The notes beneath the pieces are model-generated. The model saw only the letters and a list, made by a program, of their open reading frames with translations, did no database searches and was not told the DNA's origin. The position numbers were made by a program, and so were the translations under genes. A stretch of DNA of 64,000 nucleotides from Nitrosomonas sp. (lineage in GTDB: Bacteria; Pseudomonadota; Gammaproteobacteria; Burkholderiales; Nitrosomonadaceae): the NCBI GenBank assembly GCA_021582655.1, contig CP091135.1, positions 818,357-882,356 on the forward strand, in the 5' to 3' direction. Every line of letters begins with the position of its first letter. Position 1 is the stretch's first letter. Positions 4,460-64,000 of this stretch are shown here, piece after piece.

Positions 4460-6772
4460 ATGCAAATCGGAAACAATCCCTTATTCACTCTTGGGCCTTA
4501 TTCAGCGAAACACACCGTGCACCGTTCCTTACAACAATTTGCAACACAATTCGCCTTAATAATCGCGGTGAGCGCATGCAATCCGTTAGCCGCAGCGAAT
4601 CACTCGCCAAACAGTACCGGTCACGCCAACGAACAGCCGGGCGCGGCGGCAAATCCATCAATGATTCAACTGAAACCCGTTGAAATCATCGGCACCGTTC
4701 CGGACCGCGAAACCGCACCGAACACCAGCGTATTGAAAGGCCGCGCATTACGCTTACAGCAGCATGATACGCTCGGGCAAACCTTGCACGAAGAACTTGG
4801 CGTCAGCAACGCATCTTTTGGTCCGGGCGTCGGCATACCGGTGATACGCGGACTCACCGGCTCACGGGTGCGTATTCTGCAAAGCGGCATCGGCACTCAC
4901 GACGCCACCACGCTGAGTCCGGATCACGCCGTGGCGCTGGATCCGCTATTCGCGGAATCGATCCGGATCATGCGCGGCCCGGAAGTGGTGCGATATGGCG
5001 GCAACGCTATCGGCGGCGTTGTCGATGTCGACGACGGCCGCATTCCCGGTCAAAGAGCCAAGCAGCCTGTCGGCGGTTCGGCCGAAAGCCGCTACGACAG
5101 CAACGGCGACGGCACCCATTCCGCATTCAAGCTAAACATGGGTAAGGACCGATTGGCGTTCAATCTCGGCGGCTTTTTCCGCCAACGCAACGATACCCGC
5201 ATTCCCGGCAATGCGATCGATGCAGCGTTCCTGCAGCAACAATTCGGTTTGACGGAAACCCAGAACGTCACGGGCAAGATCCCCAATACCGACAGCCGAG
5301 GCATCGGCGGATATACCGGTATTTCATGGATCGGCAACAACTTTATGGCGGGTATGTCGGTCAGTCATACCGACAATCGTTACGGCATTCCGAAAGGCAA
5401 TCATGGTCTCGACCCCAATCATTTGGGCGGCTTGGAAACAATTCTGCCGAAACTGAACGACTTGACCGGATTTGAAGACATTTTCGGTCCGCAAGCACTA
5501 TTTCCCAATGTCCGCTTCAATATGCAGCAAACACGCTATGACTTCAAATCCGAGTGGTACGAGCCGGTACGCGGCGTGGAAAGTGTCAGTTTCCGTTACG
5601 GCTTGGTGGACTACGGCCACACCGAATTGGAAGGCGGCTCGCCTTTTACCCGTTTTAAAAACGATGTCGGCGAAGGCCGTGTCGAGGCACGCCACACTGC
5701 GTTGCCGAATTTGACCGGCACCGTCGGCGTTCAGTGGATCGATCGGAATTTTTCCGCACTCGGTATCGAAACATTTGTACCACCGACCAAACAATTTACC
5801 GTAGGTATTTATACTACGCAGGAATACACCTGGAACAACTGGATCTTGCGCGGCGGCATCCGCTTCGAGCATGCTCATGTCGATCCCAGCGCAAACACGC
5901 TCAAACTGCGCGGTAGCGCACTGCCGCCAGTACCGTTGCCTAATTCACTCGATTTTCAAGCGCTATCCGCCTCCACCGCGTTGCAATGGAATCCGCACCA
6001 GGATACCTCGTTGACACTTACGCTCAATCGCGGCAAGCGCCCGCCGGATATTCAGGAATTGCTGGCACTCGGACCGCATCTGTCCACACGCAGCTTTGAA
6101 ATCGGCAACGTGCGATTGGCCAACGAAACCGTGAACATGGTCGATCTCGGCCTGGACTGGAAAGCGAAACGTATCAGCTCACGTATCAACGGTTATTACA
6201 ATCGCACCGACGATTTTATCTATTTACGCAATACCGGGCTGGTATACGAAGTGGACAACGAAGTCATTCGCCAGCGTTGCGTCAGCGACGCGGAATGCGT
6301 GTCGGTGTTCGCTTATGATCAGCGTGACGCCGAGTTCGTCGGTTTCGAAGCCAGGACCGATGCGACCCTTTATCTATCGCCCAAAGGCAACAATATCGTG
6401 CTGACCGTGTTTTCCGATTACGTGCGTGGCCGTTTCACCAACGGCAATCGCGACGACGTGCCTCGCATGCCGCCGCTGCGCTACGGCGCCGAATTGGGAT
6501 TCGGCAATTCCGTCTGGAATACCGCGCTACGCTTTACTCGCGCGGAAGCGCAGCGCCACCCCGGACGCAACGAAACCGCCACGGACAGCTACCATCTATT
6601 AACCGCATCGGCAGATTACCAAATCAAAGCGGGAAAATGGGGGGACATGTGGTTATTTGCCAAAGGATATAACCTGTTAAATGAAGAAATCCGCAACTCG
6701 GTTTCGTTTCTGAGAAATTTCGCGCCGGAGCCGGGACGTAGCGTCATTGTCGGCATGCGGGCCACATTCTAG
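4460..6772 (+). CDS. TonB-dependent outer-membrane receptor, ZnuD-like
   Basis: A 770-residue outer-membrane receptor that probably imports zinc or a zinc complex with TonB energy. The start is an ATG eight bases after GAGGTGAGCG. After the signal region comes a TonB-box-like segment (about 70-80, LKPVEIIGT), a plug domain (about 85-195, with GVGIPVIRGLTGSRVRIL and MRGPEVVRYGGNAIGGVV), then a beta-barrel ending in the aromatic C-terminus MRATF. It is the first gene after the putative Zur operator and is followed at 11 bases by two All3515-like secreted proteins. A copper or siderophore substrate cannot be excluded; zinc is inferred from the neighbours. Confidence 0.85.
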   Translation: MQIGNNPLFTLGPYSAKHTVHRSLQQFATQFALIIAVSACNPLAAANHSPNSTGHANEQPGAAANPSMIQLKPVEIIGTVPDRETAPNTSVLKGRALRLQQHDTLGQTLHEELGVSNASFGPGVGIPVIRGLTGSRVRILQSGIGTHDATTLSPDHAVALDPLFAESIRIMRGPEVVRYGGNAIGGVVDVDDGRIPGQRAKQPVGGSAESRYDSNGDGTHSAFKLNMGKDRLAFNLGGFFRQRNDTRIPGNAIDAAFLQQQFGLTETQNVTGKIPNTDSRGIGGYTGISWIGNNFMAGMSVSHTDNRYGIPKGNHGLDPNHLGGLETILPKLNDLTGFEDIFGPQALFPNVRFNMQQTRYDFKSEWYEPVRGVESVSFRYGLVDYGHTELEGGSPFTRFKNDVGEGRVEARHTALPNLTGTVGVQWIDRNFSALGIETFVPPTKQFTVGIYTTQEYTWNNWILRGGIRFEHAHVDPSANTLKLRGSALPPVPLPNSLDFQALSASTALQWNPHQDTSLTLTLNRGKRPPDIQELLALGPHLSTRSFEIGNVRLANETVNMVDLGLDWKAKRISSRINGYYNRTDDFIYLRNTGLVYEVDNEVIRQRCVSDAECVSVFAYDQRDAEFVGFEARTDATLYLSPKGNNIVLTVFSDYVRGRFTNGNRDDVPRMPPLRYGAELGFGNSVWNTALRFTRAEAQRHPGRNETATDSYHLLTASADYQIKAGKWGDMWLFAKGYNLLNEEIRNSVSFLRNFAPEPGRSVIVGMRATF

Positions 6773-6783
6773 AAAATATCATC

Positions 6784-8169
6784 ATGACGATTACGCAACC
6801 AAACGATGCCCAGCCGCAACGATCACTGCGGTCGATTGCACTGCCCCTCTGCCTATTGCTGATCATGCTATCGACGCCCCCCCGGTTGGCTGATGCACAG
6901 CATTTGGATATCGAAATCTGGGGACAGGGCAATGCATTGTTTGTTGGATATTGCCGTATCAGCGGCGTCGTGGGGTGCGATCTGAGCGGATTGGCAGATG
7001 CGCTGCATTTACCGGCAACCACATTGCCGATCGAGGCCACCACCGGCAAATTGATCTTCCCCGCCGATCTTCAAGATTTGCCCGGCGGTCCGTTCAAGAC
7101 TAAAAACCCGGGGTTTCAGTCGGTTCAAAATGCACTGCTGCCCAACGAGCTGATCAGCTACCGCGCACTGGGCAAGATGAAATATTGGGATCCGGCTTTG
7201 TCTGCTTGGTACGACGCACCACCGGACGTACAAATCCGATTATTCGGCGGATTGGAAGCCAGCGCCGATGTACGCAACGATTTATCCGAATGCGCCGGAC
7301 AATTGATTTGCTTCAGCGACAGCAGTTTCGGCATTGACGGCAGTACAGTGTTTTCCGGCGACGGTATTCATGGCGGTGTGGAATTGGTCGCCGACATCAC
7401 CGGCGCCAACGGCATCTTGCATACCCATCTGAGTTTCTTTCTGGAAGATCGACAAGGCCGGATTGGAGGGCCCTCCGGTGCTTATTTGATTGAAATGCAA
7501 TTGCTTTCCAACGCGCGTTTCTTCCCTTCCGATTCATTTTTGATCGTACTGAACGCAGGTTTAGATGCACATCAATTCGCCGCAGCTCTGATCGCATTGA
7601 CCGGCGAATCGCCTGACATGGAACCACCGCCTCAGCCCGTAATTCCGGTTTCGATTCCCGGAGATGCAGATCTGGACGGCGATATCGATCGCATTGATGT
7701 AGCACTGATTTTACTCGCCGTACAAAACAACGAAACGCCAAATGCGACGAATGCCGCCTTTGATGTCGATAAAGACGGCGCCATCACCCGTGCCGATGCG
7801 GCTCTGGCGAAAACGCTATGCACGCTGAGACTCTGCAATATCCCGGTTGAAGCGCCGGCGACCGCACTGAACGTGGCGGCGATTTACGATCATCATACTG
7901 GCGTTTTAAACTTGAACGATATACAAGCCGACAGCCAGCATTACCGCGCGCAGTTGCAAACGCAAGCCGATGGCGCTTTAGCGCTGGTTGCGTGGCAATC
8001 GGACAAGCCGCGCTACGCAACACCGGCACAGTACGATGCCGCAACCGGAATTTTGCAAATCCCCTCGGTTTTCGTTAACGGAAAATATTACCGGGCAACC
8101 TTGCAAGAGACCGGCAACTTAAATTTCCAGGTGAAGCTGCTGGAAGAAATCAACAGCATCTTGGACTGA
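6784..8169 (+). CDS. Secreted All3515-like (Zur-regulated family) protein with dockerin domain
   Basis: A 461-residue exported protein with a signal peptide ending near AxA at residues 36-39. Residues about 40-285 resemble the cyanobacterial All3515 family, known as zinc-responsive: a GGPFKTKNPGF segment, a YWD/W motif and a GILHTHLSFFLED histidine motif followed by GAYLIEMQL. Residues about 293-350 contain two EF-hand-like loops, DADLDGDIDRID and DVDKDGAITRAD, spaced as in type I dockerins. The C-terminal ~100 residues hold a small domain (ILQIPSVFVNGKYYRATLQ) that recurs at the end of the next gene's product. Part of the putative Zur-controlled receptor operon. Binding partner and exact role are unknown. 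Confidence 0.75.
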   Translation: MTITQPNDAQPQRSLRSIALPLCLLLIMLSTPPRLADAQHLDIEIWGQGNALFVGYCRISGVVGCDLSGLADALHLPATTLPIEATTGKLIFPADLQDLPGGPFKTKNPGFQSVQNALLPNELISYRALGKMKYWDPALSAWYDAPPDVQIRLFGGLEASADVRNDLSECAGQLICFSDSSFGIDGSTVFSGDGIHGGVELVADITGANGILHTHLSFFLEDRQGRIGGPSGAYLIEMQLLSNARFFPSDSFLIVLNAGLDAHQFAAALIALTGESPDMEPPPQPVIPVSIPGDADLDGDIDRIDVALILLAVQNNETPNATNAAFDVDKDGAITRADAALAKTLCTLRLCNIPVEAPATALNVAAIYDHHTGVLNLNDIQADSQHYRAQLQTQADGALALVAWQSDKPRYATPAQYDAATGILQIPSVFVNGKYYRATLQETGNLNFQVKLLEEINSILD

Positions 8170-8211
8170 TTAATTTTTCTACACCACCTATAATACCTTC
8201 AGGAGTTAGCC

Positions 8212-8997
8212 ATGTTGAATCCACTCGGAATTACGATTCTTACGATCTTACTAAGCCTATTTTACGCACCGACCGTCGCAGCGGAAAATAACGATCATAC
8301 ACTGCACGCCGCAGACATCCAGCCATGGCGGATAGGCGCAGAAATCTTTACCAATGGTACTTTATTCGAAGCCGATTTCGGCGATCTCAACGGTGGTTCG
8401 TTTTCCACCGATGAGCCGGGTATTGATGTCAATACCGCCAAAGGCACGTTCACACCCGGCCATTGGCTGCGCTTTCAACCGACCGGACGATTGCTGTATT
8501 GGAACGGCGTGCAATGGAGCGCAACAGCTCCGAACGGAGAAAGAATCGAAATTACCGATGCACTCGATAACGTCATTACTTTCGACGCAGCCGGCGTCAG
8601 TGAGAACGCCGGCGTCATTGGTGAAATCGGTAGCGACAGCGGCTTGCATGAACACTTAAATTTCAAAATTGTCGATATATCCGGTACGCCGAACGGCACC
8701 CCGGGCGCATATCGGATTCAATTGAGATTGTTCGAATCACAAGCAAACAGCGATACCTCCGTGGCCATTGCAGCTTCATCAATCGCAATCGTATTCAATC
8801 GCGGTTTGGCACACCAGGACTTCGAACTGGCTGTCGCCGCGGCGGACGATTTGCACGAAAACGCAGTGTATGCGGAAGACAAAAAAATTGTGACCATCCC
8901 GCGCGTGAAAGCATTAGGCAGCTACTACCGGGTAAAGCTCCAGCAAATCAGTGATAATCTGTTCCAACTGATCGAGGCTTACGAAATTCCCCAGTAA
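8212..8997 (+). CDS. Secreted All3515-like protein
   Basis: A 261-residue exported protein, with signal peptide cleavage likely after TVAA near residue 25. It is a shorter paralogue of the preceding gene: GGSFSTDEPGID, then LLYWNGVQWSATAPNGE, then the histidine motif GLHEHLNFKI and AYRIQLRLFES. A short C-terminal tail (VTIPRVKALGSYYRVKLQ) matches the terminal domain of the upstream protein. No dockerin loops. Good ribosome-binding site (AGGAGTTAGCC before ATG). Position in the zinc island suggests zinc-limited expression and a periplasmic or surface role in zinc binding; this is inference. Confidence 0.75.
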   Translation: MLNPLGITILTILLSLFYAPTVAAENNDHTLHAADIQPWRIGAEIFTNGTLFEADFGDLNGGSFSTDEPGIDVNTAKGTFTPGHWLRFQPTGRLLYWNGVQWSATAPNGERIEITDALDNVITFDAAGVSENAGVIGEIGSDSGLHEHLNFKIVDISGTPNGTPGAYRIQLRLFESQANSDTSVAIAASSIAIVFNRGLAHQDFELAVAAADDLHENAVYAEDKKIVTIPRVKALGSYYRVKLQQISDNLFQLIEAYEIPQ

Positions 8998-9201
8998 CTG
9001 CCAGCTTATTTTCGACCGATCACGGGTTAATTTCTCGATCCAGACTGAATCACGGCATTTCCCTTAAATACAATGAGATGACTATGAATATAGTCTTTCC
9101 ACCTGGCAGTTTGGCGTATTAATTGGTATAGTTCGAATTAATCGGCTGCCACGTTGCAGTGCATGTGAAATTGTTATTAATTTATTGTAAAAGGACTATT
9201 T

Positions 9202-9456
9202 ATGCAGATTCATGTTTACGACACATACGTAAAAGCGAAGGACGGCCGTACCATGCATTTTGACGTGTTTACTTCAGTAAAAGATGATCAGAAAGCGGTG
9301 GAGTATGCAAAACAGTGGCTGGCCACCGTCGGCGAAGGTGATGCAGTGGTCACCAGCCGGGAATGCAGTTTTTGTCACAGCCAAAGTGCGCCGCCCCAAG
9401 TGATCGATGAAATCAGCACAAACGGTTTTTATATTTACAAGATGGAAGGTTGCTAA
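9202..9456 (+). CDS. DUF2024 family protein
   Basis: An 84-residue cytoplasmic protein that matches the DUF2024 family in length and pattern: an opening MQIHVYDTYVKAKDGRTMHF, then DVFTSVKDDQKAVEYAKQWL, then an ECSFCHSQ cysteine motif. Function of the family is not established. It has its own leader (about 200 bases without a gene upstream) and a purine-rich AAAGGAC ribosome-binding site. Not obviously in an operon. Confidence 0.8.
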   Translation: MQIHVYDTYVKAKDGRTMHFDVFTSVKDDQKAVEYAKQWLATVGEGDAVVTSRECSFCHSQSAPPQVIDEISTNGFYIYKMEGC

Positions 9457-9543
9457 GTCAGCGGCGTTCAATGGGCGCTGTCCCGATCACTTGCGTTATG
9501 CCGTCGATAAGGCGCGCGACGCTAATTCTCAGGGTTAACTAAG

Positions 9544-10059
9544 ATGATGCAGAAATTAAGTCAATTTATGATCGCCGGTGTTTGTCTCGGACTAAGCCAT
9601 GCTGCACTGGCGGCCGAACCGAAATTGATCGGTCAGCATGGTGATTGGACGGCTTATATGTTCATGGAAAACAATAACAAGGTGTGCTACATGGTAAGCC
9701 AGCCCAAGAAAGCGGAGGGCAGCTACAGCAAACGAGGCGAGGTGTATGCTTTGGTCACGCATCGGCCCGCTGAAAAGAGCAAGAACGTTTTCAGTTATAT
9801 TGCAGGCTATCCCTACAAAGCCGGCAGCGAAGTCACTGTGCTGGTAAATAATCAGAAATTCCGCTTGTTTACCCAGGACGATTCCGCGTGGACTCCGGAT
9901 GAAGCCACCGACAATAAAATTGCCGAGGCGATTAAGCGTGGCAGCTCACTGGTCATAAAAGGCGTATCAGGGCGTGGAACGGAAACAACCGATACGTTTG
10001 GTTTAAGCGGCTCGGGCGCAGCGCATAAAGCGATTTCTGCAGAATGCGGCGTCAAATAA
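9544..10059 (+). CDS. Invasion-associated locus B (IalB) family protein
   Basis: A 171-residue exported protein. The signal peptide ends near ALAA at about residue 24. The mature part begins PKLIGQHGDWTAYMF and contains an N-terminal Cys (KVCYM) and a C-terminal Cys (SAECGVK) that are typical of IalB-like periplasmic proteins and probably form a disulfide. The family is widespread in non-pathogens and has no settled biochemical role; the name comes from Bartonella. Followed 50 bases later by arsC-like gene on the same strand. Confidence 0.8.
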   Translation: MMQKLSQFMIAGVCLGLSHAALAAEPKLIGQHGDWTAYMFMENNNKVCYMVSQPKKAEGSYSKRGEVYALVTHRPAEKSKNVFSYIAGYPYKAGSEVTVLVNNQKFRLFTQDDSAWTPDEATDNKIAEAIKRGSSLVIKGVSGRGTETTDTFGLSGSGAAHKAISAECGVK

Positions 10060-50527: not shown

Positions 50528-51376
50528 ATGATCAATAAACAATCGACCTCACTCAGAATTAATGAAAAGACATTTAATTCATTAGACGAATTTGCACTTC
50601 AAGGACGGGGATGCGCTACCACCCGTCCCAATCATTATCAAATTGAACGAAACGACGAGCGACTTCGGGTAGCACGGATTGATATTCAACGTATCGAGTC
50701 AATCGAAATTGATGTGCAATTTATTCATATCCTAGATGAACATAAAGGAAAAATTACCGAGGATCAGCGCAATCAGCAAATCAAGGTACTGAATGATGCA
50801 TTTAAACCGGTCGGTATCACTTTCAGGTACTCGCCAAATCATACAAAAGAGCACTCCAATCGCGAGTGGTTTAAGATGGATCACGGCAGTGCGGCCGAGA
50901 GACAGGCTAAATCAGCACTTCGTTCCAGCCCGGAAAGGCATCTGAATTTTTATACAGCGGGCTTACGGGGCGGATTGCTAGGATGGGCAACCTTCCCGTG
51001 GGAATTGGAAGGTGATCGAGATCGTGATGGCATCGTCATTTTACACTCGACACTTCCCGGCGGCAGTGCCGCACCATATAACTTAGGAATGACCGCTGTC
51101 CATGAAATTGGGCATTGGCTTGGGCTCTATCATACATTTCAGGGCGGATGTGACGCATTCGGCGATCACGTTGGAGACACGCCAAGTCACTCTGGACCCA
51201 ATTCTGGAACACCTGATGATTCAATGCCACACAATGCCTGTAAGGCAGAAGAAAAAGCACCGGTGCACAACTACATGAATTATTCCAATGATCAATGGCT
51301 TACAGAGTTCACCCCGGGTCAAATCGAACGTATCAAGATGCACATTTCCGAATATCGCAGTGATTTTATTGTATGA
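50528..51376 (+). CDS. M43-type (pappalysin-like) zinc metalloprotease
   Basis: A 282-residue protein. The zinc motif HEIGHWLGLYHTF (HExxHxxGxxH) lies near residues 192-204, followed by the CDAFGDHVGDTP segment and a Met-turn MNYSND near 258. This is the metzincin pattern of peptidase M43. The first 30 residues (MINKQSTSLRINEKTFNSLD) lack a clear signal peptide, so it may be exported by another route or act inside the cell. Base composition is clearly lower in GC than the flanking genes. Strong GGAGG ribosome site. Followed after 111 bases by a tyrosinase-like gene. Confidence 0.87.
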   Translation: MINKQSTSLRINEKTFNSLDEFALQGRGCATTRPNHYQIERNDERLRVARIDIQRIESIEIDVQFIHILDEHKGKITEDQRNQQIKVLNDAFKPVGITFRYSPNHTKEHSNREWFKMDHGSAAERQAKSALRSSPERHLNFYTAGLRGGLLGWATFPWELEGDRDRDGIVILHSTLPGGSAAPYNLGMTAVHEIGHWLGLYHTFQGGCDAFGDHVGDTPSHSGPNSGTPDDSMPHNACKAEEKAPVHNYMNYSNDQWLTEFTPGQIERIKMHISEYRSDFIV

Positions 51377-57227: not shown

Positions 57228-58001
57228 TCAGATTCTGCCGAAAATCAAATAGGTTTCGCCCCAATTCCGGGACGGCCGCTTGGTGACTTCCAGCCCCGCT
57301 TGTTTCATGATCGCGATCGCCTGTTCCTGCTCGGCTTGCGTTCCCAATTCGATAATTACCGATTTCAGCGCCGGATTGGCCAGCACATTCGCCGCGCCTC
57401 GCAAAATGGAAATTTCAATGCCGTCGACATCGATTTTCAGATAGTTCGGGTACGGAAAACCCCAGCACCCGCACAAATCATCCAGAGTAACGCCGAACAT
57501 TCCCTGAGTATGCGTCGCTGCGATTTTCATGTTTTCCAAATCCTCCCGTCCGAATTGAGACCGGTTTCCGCCCGGTATGAATTTCGGGATGTACAGCTTG
57601 GAAAATTCACTGCGCCCGGATACTGCGACGCAGTACGACAACACCCGATCACTCAGGCCGTTCAGGTAAATATTTTTATTCAGCGCGTAATAATTATTGC
57701 TTTGCGGTTCGAATGCGAACACTTGCACCTGATCGCCGAATTTTTTCGCCGGATACAATGAATATTGCCCGATATTGGCGCCGATATCGAAGTAACAGCT
57801 CCCGGGTTCGAAACCATCGAGCCAATCCAAGGTATCCGGTTCTTTTTTCGCATACGTCCTGGCCCGATTGAGAGTGCGCAGATGATCGACAGAGATCAAG
57901 ATCCGCTGCCCTCTGACCGGTACCTCGGTATAACCGCCCTTGAATTTATAGGCCGCGACCACCAGCTCATTGAATATGTCTTTTACCCGCATCGTCGTCA
58001 C
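57228..58001 (-). CDS. FkbM family methyltransferase
   Basis: A 257-residue SAM methyltransferase. Motif I is CYFDIGANIGQYSLYPAKKF near residues 68-87, and YLKIDVDGIEISILRGA near 198-214 is the FkbM signature. Such enzymes often O-methylate glycan residues. Part of a minus-strand run of surface-glycan genes. Confidence 0.9.
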   Translation of the reverse strand: MTTMRVKDIFNELVVAAYKFKGGYTEVPVRGQRILISVDHLRTLNRARTYAKKEPDTLDWLDGFEPGSCYFDIGANIGQYSLYPAKKFGDQVQVFAFEPQSNNYYALNKNIYLNGLSDRVLSYCVAVSGRSEFSKLYIPKFIPGGNRSQFGREDLENMKIAATHTQGMFGVTLDDLCGCWGFPYPNYLKIDVDGIEISILRGAANVLANPALKSVIIELGTQAEQEQAIAIMKQAGLEVTKRPSRNWGETYLIFGRI

Positions 58002-59562: not shown

Positions 59563-60315
59563 ATGAAAACAATCGCTGTCATTCCCGCTCGCATGGGATC
59601 TTCACGTTTTCCCGGCAAACCGATCGCCAATATCCTGGGTCGCCCGATGATCGAGCACATTTATAAGCGCGTGGCAATGAGTCCGTCGCTCGATGCCACA
59701 TACATCGCCACCTGCGATGACGAAATCCGCGAAGTGGCGGAAAGCTTCGGCGCCCGGGTCATCATGACCGCAGACACGCACGAACGCGCCAGTGATCGAG
59801 TCGCCGAAGCGGCGGCGCATGTTCCCGATGCGGGCTTGATCGTCATGGTGCAAGGCGACGAACCAATGACACACCCCGACATGATCGATACCGCGGTCGC
59901 GCCGTTCCGGCACGATCCCGATCTCGGTTGCGTCAACCTGGCACGCAGAATCGAACACGAGGCCGATTACCTCGATTTCAACACCATCAAAGTGGTGATG
60001 GACCAGCATGACAATGCGCTTTACATGTCGCGCCGCCCGATTCCGTCGCTCGCCAAAACCGGGTTTGCCGGTACCGTAGTCTACAAACAAGTATGTATCA
60101 TTCCGTTTCGCCGCGATACGCTGTTCCAATATACGCAATTGCCCCCGACCCCGCTGGAACAGCTCGAGTCCATCGATATGCTGCGCCTGCTCGAACACGG
60201 TTTGCCGGTCAGAATGGTGCATACCGAATACAACACCCAAGCGGTCGACACTACCGCCGATCTGTTGCGTGTCGAAAAGCTGATGCAATCCGATCCGCTG
60301 CTCTCTCACTATTAG
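59563..60315 (+). CDS. kdsB: KdsB-like CMP-sugar (3-deoxy-manno-octulosonate) cytidylyltransferase
   Basis: A 250-residue enzyme that activates an acidic 3-deoxy sugar with CTP. Motifs: IPARMGSSRFPGKP at residues 6-19, HERASDRVAEAAAH near 72-85, MVQGDEPMTHP near 94-104 and RRPIPS near 153. Length and core match KdsB, but the gene starts an operon of sugar-synthesis enzymes rather than sitting with lpxK, so it may use a Kdo-like acid other than Kdo. GAGAACTTTC precedes the ATG. Confidence 0.85.
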   Translation: MKTIAVIPARMGSSRFPGKPIANILGRPMIEHIYKRVAMSPSLDATYIATCDDEIREVAESFGARVIMTADTHERASDRVAEAAAHVPDAGLIVMVQGDEPMTHPDMIDTAVAPFRHDPDLGCVNLARRIEHEADYLDFNTIKVVMDQHDNALYMSRRPIPSLAKTGFAGTVVYKQVCIIPFRRDTLFQYTQLPPTPLEQLESIDMLRLLEHGLPVRMVHTEYNTQAVDTTADLLRVEKLMQSDPLLSHY

Positions 60316-60323
60316 GATCTGTC

Positions 60324-61094
60324 ATGTCACTCAAAGCAAAACTGAACCGATCGCAATTGACCATCGGCTCGTGGGTCACACTGGGGCATCCGTCGATCGC
60401 CGAAATCATGGCATCCGCCGGGTTCGATTGGCTGGTGTTGGATATGGAGCACAGTGTGCTGGAACTGGGCGAAGTGCAAACCATCATCCAAGTGCTGGAC
60501 GCCAAACAATGCCCGGCCATCGTACGCCTGACATCCAATCATCCCGATCAGATCAAACGCGTGATGGACGCCGGCGCCACCGGCGTGATGGTACCGATGA
60601 TCAAATCCGCCGCCGATGCCAAAGCTGCAGTCGACGGCGTGTACTACCCGCCGCGCGGACAACGCGGTGTCGGTTTGGCACGCGCGCAAGGCTACGGTGC
60701 GAGCTTCCAGGCGTACCGGCAATGGCTGGAGGAAAACGCGGTGATTGTGGCGATGATCGAACATGTCGCTGCGGTCGAAGCGATTGACAGCATTCTCGCG
60801 GTACCCGGCATCGATGCGTATATCATCGGACCTTACGATCTGTCCGGTTCAATGGGGCGACCCGGCGATCTGAATCACCCGGAGGTGCAGGCCGCGATCA
60901 CACGCGTACTTGAAGCGGGTCGCCGGGCCGGCAAGCCGGGCGGCATTCACGTCATCGAGCCCGATCCGCAAGCACTGCAACAACGCATTCAGGCAGGTTT
61001 CAATTTCCTCGGTTATGCGCTGGATATCCGCATCCTGGATTCGATCTGCCGCTCCCATTTACACGGTATCCGTACTGCATTAGAAAAATCATGA
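60324..61094 (+). CDS. HpcH/HpaI family aldolase
   Basis: A 256-residue pyruvate-type class II aldolase. Motifs: LVLDMEHSVLEL (residues 33-44) with DxEH metal-binding, GATGVMVPMIKSAADAKAAV near 86-105 and PPRGQRGVGLARAQGYG near 110-126. The family cleaves or forms 4-hydroxy-2-oxo acids from pyruvate or oxaloacetate and an aldehyde. Start chosen at 60324 after AGGATCTGTC; the long frame from 60093 would cover kdsB. In this operon it could make the carbon skeleton of a 3-deoxy-2-ulosonic acid. Its partner dehydrogenase overlaps by four bases. Confidence 0.88.
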   Translation: MSLKAKLNRSQLTIGSWVTLGHPSIAEIMASAGFDWLVLDMEHSVLELGEVQTIIQVLDAKQCPAIVRLTSNHPDQIKRVMDAGATGVMVPMIKSAADAKAAVDGVYYPPRGQRGVGLARAQGYGASFQAYRQWLEENAVIVAMIEHVAAVEAIDSILAVPGIDAYIIGPYDLSGSMGRPGDLNHPEVQAAITRVLEAGRRAGKPGGIHVIEPDPQALQQRIQAGFNFLGYALDIRILDSICRSHLHGIRTALEKS

Positions 61095-62023
61095 ATACAT
61101 TGGTTATTTCCACATCATCGTTTGGTATCGACCAGAACCCGCCGCTACAACAATTGCAGCAACAAGGTTTCCGCATCATCACCAACCCGTACAAACGCAA
61201 ACTGACGGAAGATGAGATCATCGGGCTATTGAAGGACGGCGCTATCGGCCTGATCGCCGGTATCGAACCGTTGACCGAACGTGTGTTCCAAGCCGCACCG
61301 GCACTGAAAGTCATCTCACGCTGCGGCGCGGGGTTGGACAGCGTCGATCTCGCCGCTGCGCAGAGCCGCGGCATCGCGGTGCTGAACACACCGGAAGCAC
61401 CCGCACAAGCGGTCGCTGAATTGACAATGGGGTATATTTTGGGTTTGCTGCGGCAGATCAGCGAGATCGATCAGGCCGTGCGCAGCGGCGAATGGCCACG
61501 CACCCAAGGCCGGCTGCTTGCAGCGCAAACCGTCGGTATCGTGGGGCTTGGTCATATCGGCCGCCGCGTGGCGCGGCTGTGCCGGGCGTTTGAAGCCGCC
61601 GTGATCGCATATGATCCGTTCGCAACCCGGATGCCGGACGATGTGACATCCGTATCGTTCGAACAACTGCTGCAACAGGCGGATATTATCACGCTGCATT
61701 TGCCGTACTCCGCCGGCACGCATCACTTGCTCGACACCCAAGCATTCGCCGCGATGAAACCGGAAGCGATCGTCATCAATGCCGCACGCGGCGGTCTGAT
61801 CGACGAGGACGCGCTCGCACAAGCGCTGCAATCCGGCAAGCTTGCCGCCGCCGCGCTGGACGTATTCGAACAGGAGCCCTACCGGGGTCCGCTGCTTGCA
61901 CTGCACCATGTCACCGTGACTTCACACGTCGGCTCACTGGCCAGAGAATCGCGGCAACGCATGGAAACCGAAGCGGCGGAAAATCTGCTGCAAGGCCTGA
62001 CCCGAATAGGCGCAATCCGATGA
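61091..62023 (+). CDS. D-2-hydroxyacid dehydrogenase (phosphoglycerate dehydrogenase-like)
   Basis: A 310-residue NAD-dependent dehydrogenase. NAD motif GIVGLGHIGRRVARLC near residues 153-168; catalytic Arg and nearby in NAARGGLIDEDAL near 231-243; catalytic His in TSHVGSLA near 277. It would oxidise or reduce a 2-hydroxy/2-oxo acid of the pathway. Overlaps aldolase and epimerase genes by four bases each, showing tight coupling. Confidence 0.9.
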   Translation: MNTLVISTSSFGIDQNPPLQQLQQQGFRIITNPYKRKLTEDEIIGLLKDGAIGLIAGIEPLTERVFQAAPALKVISRCGAGLDSVDLAAAQSRGIAVLNTPEAPAQAVAELTMGYILGLLRQISEIDQAVRSGEWPRTQGRLLAAQTVGIVGLGHIGRRVARLCRAFEAAVIAYDPFATRMPDDVTSVSFEQLLQQADIITLHLPYSAGTHHLLDTQAFAAMKPEAIVINAARGGLIDEDALAQALQSGKLAAAALDVFEQEPYRGPLLALHHVTVTSHVGSLARESRQRMETEAAENLLQGLTRIGAIR

Positions 62024-62958
62024 CTGCCATCTCAAGCGAGAAAGTCATCGTCTTTGGCGCCAGCGGCTTTCTCGGCAGCCATGTGGCCGACGCTTTGACC
62101 ACCGCCGGCTACCAAGTACGGTTATTCGACCGCGTACCGTCACCGTTTCAAAAGAATAACCAGGAAATGATCGTCGGCGACATCATGGACCTCGATCAAG
62201 TCGTCGAAGCCGCCAAAGGCGCGTCGATCGTATATAACTTCGCCGCCATCGCCGACATCGACGAAGCGCACGACAAACCGATTCCGACTGCGACCATCAA
62301 CGTGCTGGGCAACATGCACACGCTGGAAGCCGCCCGCATCGCCGGTGCGCGCCGATTCGTATTCGCCAGCACCGTATACGTCTATTCCGAATCCGGCTCG
62401 TTTTACCGCGCCAGCAAACAGGCGGCGGAGCGCTTCACCGAAACTTACCACGAACGCTACGGTCTCGATTACAACATTCTGCGCTACGGTTCGCTGTACG
62501 GCCGCCGTGCCGACCGCCGCAACGGCATCTACCGCATGCTGCGCGAAGCGATCGAACATTATTCGATCACCTACAAAGGCAGCGGCGAAGCGATGCGCGA
62601 ATACATCCACGTCGAAGATGCGGCACGCATGAGCGTGCAGGTGCTGGCACCCGAATTCACCAATCGTCACTTGATTCTGACCGGTCAGGAAAAATTGCGC
62701 ATCAAGGATGTGATGACGATGATTTCCGAAATGATGCCGTGGCCGGTTGAATTGCATTTCGACGAAGCCAATACCGTACATCATTACACAATCACGCCGT
62801 ACGCGTTTCAACCGAAAATCGGCCGCAAACTGGTGCTGAACGAACATGTCGATCTCGGACAAGGCCTGCTCGACTGCCTGCGCGAAATTCACCAGGATTT
62901 GCACCACGGCGACGAAAATGATGATGCCACCCCGGCCACGCCGGACAACCGGGCCTGA
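62020..62958 (+). CDS. NAD-dependent epimerase/dehydratase
   Basis: A 312-residue extended SDR. The NAD motif VFGASGFLGSHVADAL is at residues 9-24 and the catalytic pair is in SFYRASKQ near 127-134 (YxxxK). It probably epimerises or dehydrates a nucleotide-linked or free sugar of this pathway. Translationally coupled to its upstream gene, followed after four bases by the HAD gene. Confidence 0.9.
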   Translation: MTAISSEKVIVFGASGFLGSHVADALTTAGYQVRLFDRVPSPFQKNNQEMIVGDIMDLDQVVEAAKGASIVYNFAAIADIDEAHDKPIPTATINVLGNMHTLEAARIAGARRFVFASTVYVYSESGSFYRASKQAAERFTETYHERYGLDYNILRYGSLYGRRADRRNGIYRMLREAIEHYSITYKGSGEAMREYIHVEDAARMSVQVLAPEFTNRHLILTGQEKLRIKDVMTMISEMMPWPVELHFDEANTVHHYTITPYAFQPKIGRKLVLNEHVDLGQGLLDCLREIHQDLHHGDENDDATPATPDNRA

Positions 62959-62962
62959 CGCG

Positions 62963-63604
62963 ATGAAAACCGCTAACCGGCAAGCAATCATTTTCGATTT
63001 CGACGGCGTGGTGGTCGAGTCCGGTAAAATCAAAACCCAGGCGTTCGCGGAACTCTATCGCGCATACGGCGAAGACATCGTCGCCAAAGTGGTGCAATTC
63101 CATATGCAAAACGGCGGCATGTCGCGCCACCGTAAATTCCGGCATTTCCAGGAACACTTTCTCCATCAGCCACCGCTGACCGAAGCGGAAGAAAAACAAC
63201 TCGATATCCACTTTTCTGAATTGGTGGTCGAAGCCGTGATCGCCGCCGATCCGGTGCCCGGCGCCATCGAACTGATTCGCCGGCAATCCGGCAAAATCCC
63301 GTTATTCGTCGCTTCCGGCACCCCGGAAACGGAACTCAGAATCATCGTCGAACGGCGCGGCCTCGCTCCTTATTTCACCGATGTGCATGGCGCACCGGCG
63401 CTGAAGAAAACCATCATTGCGGAAATTTTGTCCAAGTACGCGCTGCAACCCGAGGCGGTACTGATGATCGGTGACGCGATGGCGGATCTGGAAGGCGCGC
63501 AAGCCAACAACACCGCTTTTCTGGGTCGCGTGTATCCCGGCGATCCGAATCCGTTCCCTGCGCACATCGAAACCGTGCCTGATTTGTGCGGCTTGGTTGA
63601 ATAA
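62963..63604 (+). CDS. HAD-superfamily phosphatase
   Basis: A 213-residue HAD hydrolase. Motif I is IIFDFDGVVVESG at residues 9-21, motif II LFVASGTPETE near 114-124, and motif IV MIGDAMADLEGAQ near 169-181. In this operon it would remove a phosphate from a sugar intermediate, as in other acidic-sugar pathways. The longer frame from 62846 overlaps the epimerase and is not used. Last gene of the plus-strand operon. Confidence 0.9.
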   Translation: MKTANRQAIIFDFDGVVVESGKIKTQAFAELYRAYGEDIVAKVVQFHMQNGGMSRHRKFRHFQEHFLHQPPLTEAEEKQLDIHFSELVVEAVIAADPVPGAIELIRRQSGKIPLFVASGTPETELRIIVERRGLAPYFTDVHGAPALKKTIIAEILSKYALQPEAVLMIGDAMADLEGAQANNTAFLGRVYPGDPNPFPAHIETVPDLCGLVE

Positions 63605-63612
63605 ATCCGCCG

Positions 63613-64000
63613 ATGCCGATGCAACGTAAAGTTTTCCCGGATATCGACTCATTAAGCCAAGATTTCGCCGACTTTGCCGCAACCGTGCTGCAAAACGCGC
63701 TGACCCGCCGCCCTCAAGTCGCCCTCGCCGTCCCCGGCGGCAACACCCCGCGCCACTACCTGCCCGCGCTGGCCCGATGCCGGTTACCCTGGGAACGCAT
63801 TACCGTCACGCTCAGCGACGAACGCTGGGTCAACACCGACGATGCGCAATCAAACGAACATCTGGTGAAGCAGCACTTGATGCAACACCTCCCCCCGGAA
63901 ACACCGTTCATCGGGCTCAAAACCCGCCACGACAACCCTTTTGACGCTGCCGCCGAAATCCACCGGCGCCTGGATGCGTTACCGTTGCCGATCAGCTTGA
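63613..64000 (+). CDS. pgl: 6-phosphogluconolactonase, N-terminal part
   Basis: An open frame from the ATG at 63613 (or 63619) runs past the window edge, giving about 129 residues without stop. It shows VALAVPGGNTPRHYLPALA (residues about 35-53) and WERITVTLSDERWVN (about 58-72), which are 6PGL/DevB signatures, then SNEHLVKQHL. It hydrolyses 6-phosphogluconolactone in the oxidative pentose-phosphate pathway. The C-terminal part is outside the window. Confidence 0.88.
   Translation, partial: MPMQRKVFPDIDSLSQDFADFAATVLQNALTRRPQVALAVPGGNTPRHYLPALARCRLPWERITVTLSDERWVNTDDAQSNEHLVKQHLMQHLPPETPFIGLKTRHDNPFDAAAEIHRRLDALPLPISL

What the first reader, a model, noticed from the sequence alone, without database searches (positions are those of the whole stretch)
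59563..63604. Five-gene operon for a possible new acidic 3-deoxy sugar made with a pyruvate-type aldolase
KdsB-like cytidylyltransferase, HpcH/HpaI aldolase, 2-hydroxyacid dehydrogenase, epimerase and HAD phosphatase are tightly coupled (three ATGA-like or short junctions). Kdo and sialic acids are normally made by PEP-dependent synthases (KdsA/NeuB), none of which is here. An aldolase joining pyruvate to an aldehyde could build a 4-hydroxy-2-oxo acid that is then activated with CMP. Neighbouring glycosyltransferases and an O-antigen ligase would use it.
Basis: partly seen in the sequence, partly recalled or inferred. Interest (0 to 1): 0.75.

Follow-up and report, generated by a model that had tools for sequence, protein, structure and literature searches.

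The report
Operon for a non-Kdo acidic sugar
A five-gene set found across a family of ammonia-oxidising bacteria that appear to have no lipopolysaccharide probably builds and activates an acidic sugar that resembles, but is not, the usual sugar Kdo; the sugar itself has not been identified.

Summary
The five genes are real and tightly coupled. In 73 of 74 Nitrosomonadaceae loci with enough sequence they keep their order; the exception is an assembly gap. The cytidylyltransferase is in 121 of 125 family genomes. It is probably not a Kdo enzyme. Over curated cut-offs, KdsA, canonical KdsB, KdsD and WaaA are in 0 of 37 Nitrosomonas and in 23, 22, 23 and 24 of 24 other genera of the order; LpxC in 0 of 25 against 16 of 16; LpxB in 0 of 125 family genomes. 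Serine palmitoyltransferase (sphingolipids) is in 35 of 37 against 0 of 24. Four C-domain positions that are H, Y, E, Q in 21 of 21 canonical KdsB are Q, I, D, M here and (once M for I) in six relatives, five near an aldolase. Best reading: an aldolase-built, CMP-activated 2-oxo acid other than Kdo. The product is not shown, and dehydrogenase, SDR and HAD also occur without this aldolase in view, so the chemistry is open.

The parts
59563..60315 (+). KdsB-like cytidylyltransferase of a separate subfamily (C51 A76 Q176 I180 D205 M206 instead of D G H Y E Q)
   Evidence: NF009905 300.8 bits, CTP_transf_3; signature and clade; in 121 of 125 family genomes
60324..61094 (+). HpcH/HpaI-type aldolase; D40, H43, R68, E146 and D172 invariant, Y171 before the metal Asp
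   Evidence: HpcH_HpaI 130.2 bits; closest PDB chains are aldolases of this family; 12-sequence alignment; catalytic roles recalled
61091..62023 (+). D-2-hydroxyacid dehydrogenase, PGDH-like; R233, E262, H279 invariant in 17 sequences
   Evidence: 2-Hacid_dh_C 197.9 bits; TIGR01327 265 bits, below its cut-off of 454; alignment
62020..62958 (+). extended SDR (NAD-dependent epimerase/dehydratase family), Y129 and K133 invariant
   Evidence: Epimerase 144.7 bits; 51-sequence alignment; 44-55% identical matches in 8 further genomes of a 398-genome phylum draw
62963..63604 (+). HAD-family hydrolase, D12 and D14 kept
   Evidence: PF00702 69.6 bits; 10-sequence alignment
63613..64000 (+). 6-phosphogluconolactonase-like gene, cut by the window end; possible sixth member
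   Evidence: PF01182 80.7 bits; 8-base gap; same strand within 5.5 kb in 51 of 71 family loci; PF01182 genes near the module in L199 and L201 and a weaker match in L203
58042..59307 (-). divergent GT-B-fold protein, candidate glycosyltransferase
   Evidence: no Pfam hit, NCBIfam only 20.1 bits against a cut-off of 200, no PDB sequence hit; AF2 model pLDDT 80.9, pTM 0.78; best Foldseek matches are UDP-GlcNAc 2-epimerases and GT-B transferases; opposite strand in 96 of 104 loci
57228..58001 (-). FkbM-type methyltransferase
   Evidence: TIGR01444 82.7 bits, PF05050; FkbM-like matches also near the module in L199, L200, L203 and L201
56190..57200 (-). family 2 glycosyltransferase
   Evidence: PF00535 76 bits
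54856..56277 (-). Wzy_C-domain polymerase/ligase
   Evidence: PF04932 73.7 bits; start codon not resolved (the ORF overlaps the next gene)

Best explanation
The operon makes a CMP-activated acidic sugar of the 2-oxo acid type that is not Kdo, for a surface glycan of bacteria that appear to have no lipopolysaccharide. Proposed order: SDR and D-2-hydroxyacid dehydrogenase (perhaps with the lactonase-like neighbour) prepare or finish a sugar or sugar acid; the HpcH/HpaI aldolase adds pyruvate to its aldehyde to give a 2-oxo-3-deoxy acid; the HAD protein removes a phosphate; the KdsB-like enzyme joins CMP to the 2-oxo acid; the divergent GT-B protein or a neighbouring transferase uses it. Shown: gene families, order, conservation, absence of the Kdo/lipid A genes tested, changed positions in the cytidylyltransferase, conserved aldolase residues. 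Inferred: every reaction, the order, the acceptor aldehyde, the product and its destination.
For: Order kept in 73 of 74 judgeable family loci (these were picked by aldolase); aldolase and dehydrogenase follow the cytidylyltransferase in 30 of 30 loci picked by the latter; cytidylyltransferase in 121 of 125 family genomes, 98 of 99 of the more complete ones. Over cut-off: KdsA 0 of 37 Nitrosomonas versus 23 of 24 other genera; canonical KdsB 0 of 37 versus 22 of 24; KdsD 0 of 37 versus 23 of 24; WaaA 0 of 37 versus 24 of 24; LpxC 0 of 25 versus 16 of 16; LpxB 0 of 125 family genomes. Signature DGHYEQ in 21 of 21 canonical KdsB, CAQIDM in 109 of 110 family sequences (the other has unread X) and C[AC]Q[IM]DM in six relatives; in a 66-row tree the signature group is one side of a branch, 100/99. 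Of the six, five have an aldolase homologue in the stretch read, and the sixth lies at a contig end in a genome (G212) whose other contig has aldolase, HAD, SDR and dehydrogenase. G192 and G184 also carry a canonical-signature KdsB. All five functions outside the family: L148, with other long ORFs between, and a plasmid of Acuticoccus sp. whose cytidylyltransferase is annotated as acylneuraminate type.
Against: Dehydrogenase, SDR and HAD occur without an HpcH aldolase in view in L201 and L202 (L203 has SDR and HAD only), and beside a NeuB-type synthase in L200; dehydrogenase and SDR lie near transketolase-like or E1-type genes in L205 and L202. So the aldolase may not be the key step. Conversely L149, L150, L152 and L153 have cytidylyltransferase and aldolase without this SDR in view. 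NCBIfam places the cytidylyltransferase above the cut-offs of two subfamily models named for Kdo, NF009905 and NF003952. That the four C-domain positions contact Kdo is my recall of the E. coli structure. A KdsB-like protein outside the clade (L186) also departs from the canonical signature (EGQYEI). No activity or sugar analysis exists here.
Confidence: 0.55

Rival explanations
1. The 2-oxo acid is made by oxidation, not by aldol addition: SDR oxidises an aldose (phosphate) to a lactone, the lactonase-like protein opens it, the D-2-hydroxyacid dehydrogenase oxidises C2, HAD removes phosphate, and CMP is joined to an ulosonic acid that is not 3-deoxy. The aldolase has another, perhaps salvage, role.
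For: Dehydrogenase, SDR, HAD and a divergent CTP_transf_3 cytidylyltransferase occur without HpcH aldolase in view in L201 and L202. Lactonase-like genes lie near the module in the window, L199, L201 and L203. The SDR has a weak match to NAD-dependent glucose-6-phosphate dehydrogenase Azf, 37.5 bits against a cut-off of 400.
Against: In 30 of 30 family loci picked by the cytidylyltransferase the aldolase follows it, and the signature cytidylyltransferase goes with the aldolase where the SDR is not in view (L149, L152, L153; their genomes G129, G192 and G078 are not among the SDR hits). The Azf match is far below its cut-off, and eight other models score higher.
Confidence: 0.2
2. The operon makes Kdo itself by an alternative route (pyruvate plus arabinose or arabinose 5-phosphate), and the KdsB-like enzyme makes ordinary CMP-Kdo.
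For: NCBIfam and the best PDB sequence matches are CMP-Kdo synthetases; CTP-site and metal-binding residues are kept.
Against: KdsD and WaaA are not found in 37 Nitrosomonas over cut-off, LpxC not in 25, LpxB not in 125 family genomes, so neither the usual arabinose 5-phosphate source nor the usual Kdo acceptor is in evidence; C-domain positions kept in canonical KdsB, in a capsule-cluster KdsB (L185) and in a KdsA-linked one (L159) are changed; G192 and G184 keep a canonical-signature KdsB beside this type.
Confidence: 0.1
3. Two pathways share one transcript: cytidylyltransferase plus aldolase make one compound, dehydrogenase plus SDR plus HAD another part of the same glycan.
For: Each subset occurs without the other in other loci; in G228 they lie on separate contigs (L150, L202).
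Against: The dehydrogenase family occurs with both subsets (L149, L152, L153 and L199-L202), which links them.
Confidence: 0.15

Closest known systems
Kdo pathway (KdsD, KdsA, KdsC, KdsB) with WaaA
   Same: CMP activation of a 2-oxo acid by a KdsB-family enzyme; a HAD-superfamily protein in the set
   Different: No KdsD, KdsA or WaaA over cut-off in 37 Nitrosomonas; an HpcH/HpaI aldolase and no PEP synthase in the cluster; changed C-domain positions; additional dehydrogenase and SDR. KdsC was not searched.
Nonulosonic acid pathways (NeuB/NeuA type)
   Same: CMP activation; the Acuticoccus set has a cytidylyltransferase annotated as acylneuraminate type, and L200 has a NeuB-type synthase beside dehydrogenase, SDR and HAD
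   Different: No NeuB among this cluster's genes, and no aminotransferase or acetyltransferase among the five
HpcH/HpaI class II pyruvate aldolases (HpaI, GarL, YfaU/RhmA)
   Same: Family profile; D40, H43, R68, E146, D172 kept
   Different: Below the cut-offs of the four curated families it matches (HpaI 189.2 against 368.8 bits); Tyr171 where the two best PDB matches have Ala; set beside surface-glycan genes
Leisingera plasmid set: aldolase catalytic-domain protein, KdsB-like, HAD (L186)
   Same: An aldolase, a KdsB-like enzyme and a HAD protein adjacent
   Different: The aldolase is not an HpcH/HpaI hit; no dehydrogenase or SDR match beside it; other residues at the signature positions (EGQYEI)

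Membership tests
CMP-Kdo synthetase (KdsB) | KdsB subfamily profile | tested here: met
   NF009905 300.8 bits, cut-off 255; NF003952 282, cut-off 193
CMP-Kdo synthetase (KdsB) | score over the kdsB equivalog models TIGR00466 and NF003948 | tested here: not met
   143.2 against 155.2 and 165.5 against 281 bits
CMP-Kdo synthetase (KdsB) | CTP-binding loop and the two metal-binding Asp | tested here: met
   P8, R10, R15, K19, D99, D229 shared with the canonical set; roles from PMC3149649 section 6 and part 1 of section 7, mapped by motif
CMP-Kdo synthetase (KdsB) | His, Tyr, Glu, Gln at the C-domain positions (E. coli 181, 185, 210, 211) | tested here: not met
   Q, I, D, M instead; that these contact Kdo is recalled
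CMP-Kdo synthetase (KdsB) | activity on Kdo | not testable with these tools
   needs an assay
Kdo pathway for LPS | KdsA, KdsD and WaaA in the same genomes | tested here: not met
   0 of 37 Nitrosomonas over cut-off for each
HpcH/HpaI class II aldolase | family profile and catalytic residues | tested here: met
   PF03328 130.2 bits; residues invariant in 12 sequences; catalytic roles recalled
HpcH/HpaI class II aldolase | membership of a named catabolic group (HpaI, GarL, RhmA) | tested here: not met
   below all four cut-offs
NeuB/NeuA nonulosonic acid pathway | PEP-dependent NeuB-type synthase in the cluster | tested here: not met
   none among the cluster genes scanned; NeuB elsewhere in the genome was not searched with its own profile

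The most novel reading that the evidence does not exclude
Nitrosomonadaceae as a family have given up lipopolysaccharide for sphingolipid-based outer membranes, and this operon supplies the Kdo substitute: an aldolase-made, CMP-activated acidic 2-oxo sugar that forms the inner, charged part of a sphingolipid-linked or otherwise anchored surface glycan.
Probability: 0.2. Interest if true: 0.85.

Novelty: new variant of a known kind. Interest (0 to 1): 0.62.

Why it matters
CMP-activated 2-oxo acids (Kdo, sialic acids) normally start from PEP-dependent synthases. An operon with an aldolase in that place, kept across a family of ammonia oxidisers whose genomes lack the Kdo and lipid A genes tested, would mean an unrecognised sugar and a different outer-membrane chemistry in organisms central to the nitrogen cycle. 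It would also mean that automatic 'KdsB' labels on this subfamily are probably wrong. Both points can be tested in Nitrosomonas europaea or with purified proteins.

Tried and rejected
Kdo for LPS: rejected as the main reading because KdsA, KdsD, WaaA and LpxC (in the genomes searched) and LpxB (125 family genomes) do not reach their cut-offs. Module restricted to LPS-free bacteria: rejected; LpxC is over cut-off in 5 of 6 other genomes with the signature cytidylyltransferase (the sixth, G184, is 78% complete, and the G212 match is partial). Dehydrogenase making hydroxypyruvate as aldol donor: less likely, since a dehydrogenase of the same kind sits beside a NeuB-type synthase in L200. The divergent gene as a WaaA-like Kdo transferase: not supported; Foldseek shows a GT-B fold with UDP-GlcNAc 2-epimerases on top, and none of the 50 rows shown is a Kdo transferase. 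Streptomyces plasmid kdsB: ordinary, beside kdsA. Phages: 7 records with a distant KdsB, none above 37.5%. The break in L033 is a run of N, not a loss. Kdo-contact residues in print: and passages of PMC12058783 (a docking study) did not settle them. Literature: ten searches; I saw listings, and passages or sections of four papers (PMC9386255, PMC11324152, PMC3149649, PMC12058783). I found no description of this cluster or of lipid A loss in Nitrosomonas, but lists were capped (15 of 26 shown) and the library lacks most subscription journals. KdsA-profile matches below the cut-off (at most about 109 bits) in 27 of 37 Nitrosomonas were not identified; matches of that strength also occur in genomes with a true KdsA.
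Full report
WHAT IS THERE. The window lies in a Nitrosomonas-group chromosome (one contig of 2.46 Mb, estimated 83% complete; named relatives). Five + strand genes at 59563-63604 encode a KdsB-like cytidylyltransferase, an HpcH/HpaI aldolase, a PGDH-like D-2-hydroxyacid dehydrogenase, an extended SDR and a HAD hydrolase. Junctions are +8, -4, -4 and +4 bases, and +8 to a sixth, 6-phosphogluconolactonase-like gene cut by the window end. Upstream on the other strand lie a GT-B-fold gene, FkbM, a family 2 glycosyltransferase and a Wzy_C protein.

CONSERVATION. A scan of genome contigs with the aldolase kept the best 80 of 129 loci. The titles name Nitrosomonas, Nitrosospira, Nitrosovibrio or Nitrosomonadaceae, except one Nitrosomonadales bacterium and three titled only as proteobacterium or betaproteobacterium. 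With the best 30 loci of the cytidylyltransferase search this makes 110 loci, partly the same genomes twice. Of 74 with at least 4.1 kb downstream, 73 keep all five genes in order on one strand; the other, L033, has a run of N there. These 74 were picked by aldolase; the 30 short loci picked by cytidylyltransferase all show aldolase and dehydrogenase after it. The GT-B gene is on the opposite strand in 96 of 104 loci with room, and the lactonase-like gene follows in 51 of 71. In 125 held genomes of the family (four genera) the cytidylyltransferase is found in 121 at E <= 1e-60, in 98 of 99 of the more complete ones.

NO KDO PATHWAY SEEN. In 61 genomes (37 Nitrosomonas, 24 other genera of the order), matches over the curated cut-off were: KdsA 0 of 37 and 23 of 24; TIGR00466 KdsB 0 of 37 and 22 of 24; WaaA 0 of 37 and 24 of 24; KdsD 0 of 37 and 23 of 24. 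LpxC: 0 of 25 and 16 of 16. LpxB: 0 of 125 family genomes over cut-off, with four partial matches of about 20 bits; four named control genomes scored over cut-off. KdsC, LpxA, LpxD, LpxK and the Lpt proteins were not searched. Below the cut-off, KdsA-profile matches of at most about 109 bits occur in 27 of 37 Nitrosomonas but not in the window's genome; matches of that strength occur in genomes with a true KdsA too, so they are probably related synthases, not identified here. Serine palmitoyltransferase (query from E. coli BL21) is present in 35 of 37 Nitrosomonas at 53-56% identity and in 0 of 24 other genera at E <= 1e-60. Two papers, of which I saw passages only, report sphingolipid gene clusters in Nitrosomonas eutropha (PMC9386255; PMC11324152). 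I infer, without chemical proof, that the family has no lipid A-type LPS and makes sphingolipids.

THE CYTIDYLYLTRANSFERASE. It keeps the CTP loop and both metal Asp (P8, R10, R15, K19, D99, D229; roles from PMC3149649; passages say that the C-terminal domain binds Kdo). At six positions that are D, G, H, Y, E, Q in 21 of 21 canonical sequences (20 from the order, one E. coli), 109 of 110 family sequences have C, A, Q, I, D, M; the remaining one has unread X. In E. coli numbering the last four are H181, Y185, E210 and Q211; that they touch Kdo is my recall, not a result. In a phylum-wide draw (26 of 398 genomes with E <= 1e-50, two of them Nitrosomonas), the 26 loci from the other 24 genomes divide into 6 with C[AC]Q[IM]DM, 1 in between (L144, CAIFDS) and 19 canonical. 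In a tree of 66 rows (15 of them from the family) the signature set is one side of a branch, 100/99; the only other row inside is L144, which has a long branch and an unsure place. An aldolase homologue lies within 1.5 kb (less at contig ends) in 3 of the 6 and in 0 of the other 20. In larger stretches it was found in two more of the 6 (L152, L153); the last (L122/L151) is at a contig end, and its genome has aldolase, HAD, SDR and dehydrogenase on another contig, L199. Larger stretches were read for only 2 of the other 20 (L154, L155), without an aldolase. G192 and G184 also have a canonical-signature KdsB; G078 has a second, distant KdsB-like gene of unclear kind.

THE OTHER ENZYMES. The aldolase has D40, H43, R68, E146 and D172 invariant in 12 sequences, matching by recall the catalytic and metal residues of HpaI; Y171 replaces the Ala seen in the two best PDB matches. 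It scores below the cut-offs of the four curated aldolase models it matches. The dehydrogenase keeps R233, E262 and H279 in 17 sequences and the HAD protein D12 and D14 in 10; the SDR keeps Y129 and K133 in 51. The divergent gene product was modelled (pLDDT 80.9, pTM 0.78) and resembles UDP-GlcNAc 2-epimerases and GT-B transferases (TM 0.35-0.62 by query length in the 50 rows shown); its substrate is unknown.

THE MODULE ELSEWHERE. The SDR has close matches in 10 of 398 genomes of the phylum draw, two of them Nitrosomonas. In the nine loci of the other eight (L148, L199-L206) a dehydrogenase match is present in 8, HAD in 6, the HpcH aldolase in 2 (L148, L199); several stretches end at contig ends. 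L201, L202 and L203 have a divergent cytidylyltransferase of family PF02348, and L200 a NeuB-type synthase; L202 and L205 have thiamine-dependent E1 or transketolase-like genes. The Acuticoccus plasmid NZ_CP094833 has aldolase (41%), an annotated acylneuraminate cytidylyltransferase, dehydrogenase (51%), HAD (45%) and SDR (50%; next best plasmid match about 30%) in one run. L152 and L153 have cytidylyltransferase, aldolase and dehydrogenase with other companions. LpxC is over cut-off in 5 of 6 of the other signature genomes. So the module is not tied to LPS loss, the dehydrogenase is the commonest partner, and the carbon skeleton may be made differently in different hosts.

HOW IT PROBABLY WORKS. 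A sugar or sugar acid is prepared by SDR and dehydrogenase, extended by pyruvate through the aldolase, dephosphorylated, joined to CMP and transferred to a surface glycan. Each reaction is inferred from family membership. The strongest doubt is whether the aldolase or the dehydrogenase makes the 2-oxo acid. I put 0.55 on the aldolase reading, 0.2 on oxidation, 0.15 on two pathways in one transcript, 0.1 on Kdo by another route.

VERDICT. The library searches on the cluster or on lipid A in Nitrosomonas listed no description of either; that is a limited search of listings. Novelty: a new variant of CMP-2-oxo-sugar synthesis, product unknown.

Noticed in passing
whole genome G000 and family Nitrosomonadaceae: KdsA, KdsD and WaaA (0 of 37), LpxC (0 of 25) and LpxB (0 of 125) do not reach their cut-offs, while serine palmitoyltransferase is in 35 of 37 Nitrosomonas: an apparently LPS-free, sphingolipid-making family.
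   Followed up: partly
window 63613-64000: A 6-phosphogluconolactonase-like gene follows the operon, and similar genes lie near related modules in L199, L201 and L203; it may belong to the pathway.
   Followed up: partly
L200 (G204) 5171-9605: A NeuB-type synthase stands beside an FkbM-like gene, the dehydrogenase, SDR and HAD genes: the same triad with a synthase of the PEP-dependent family.
   Followed up: partly
L201 4358-6202, L202 6266-7441, L203 10791-11957: Radical SAM proteins (one B12-binding, two SPASM) lie among the SDR and HAD genes and a divergent cytidylyltransferase.
   Followed up: no
L144 (G096): KdsB-like protein with an in-between signature (CAIFDS) that falls with the signature clade; no HpcH aldolase within 1.5 kb.
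   Followed up: no
G451 contig C19:32842-33594: A second, 49% identical match to the operon's cytidylyltransferase in a family member; that assembly has 8% contamination, and its signature was not read.
   Followed up: no
L186 (Leisingera plasmid): An 'aldolase catalytic domain-containing protein', a KdsB-like protein and a HAD protein in a row: another aldolase plus cytidylyltransferase combination.
   Followed up: no
window 50528-51376: M43 (pappalysin-like) metallopeptidase.
   Followed up: no
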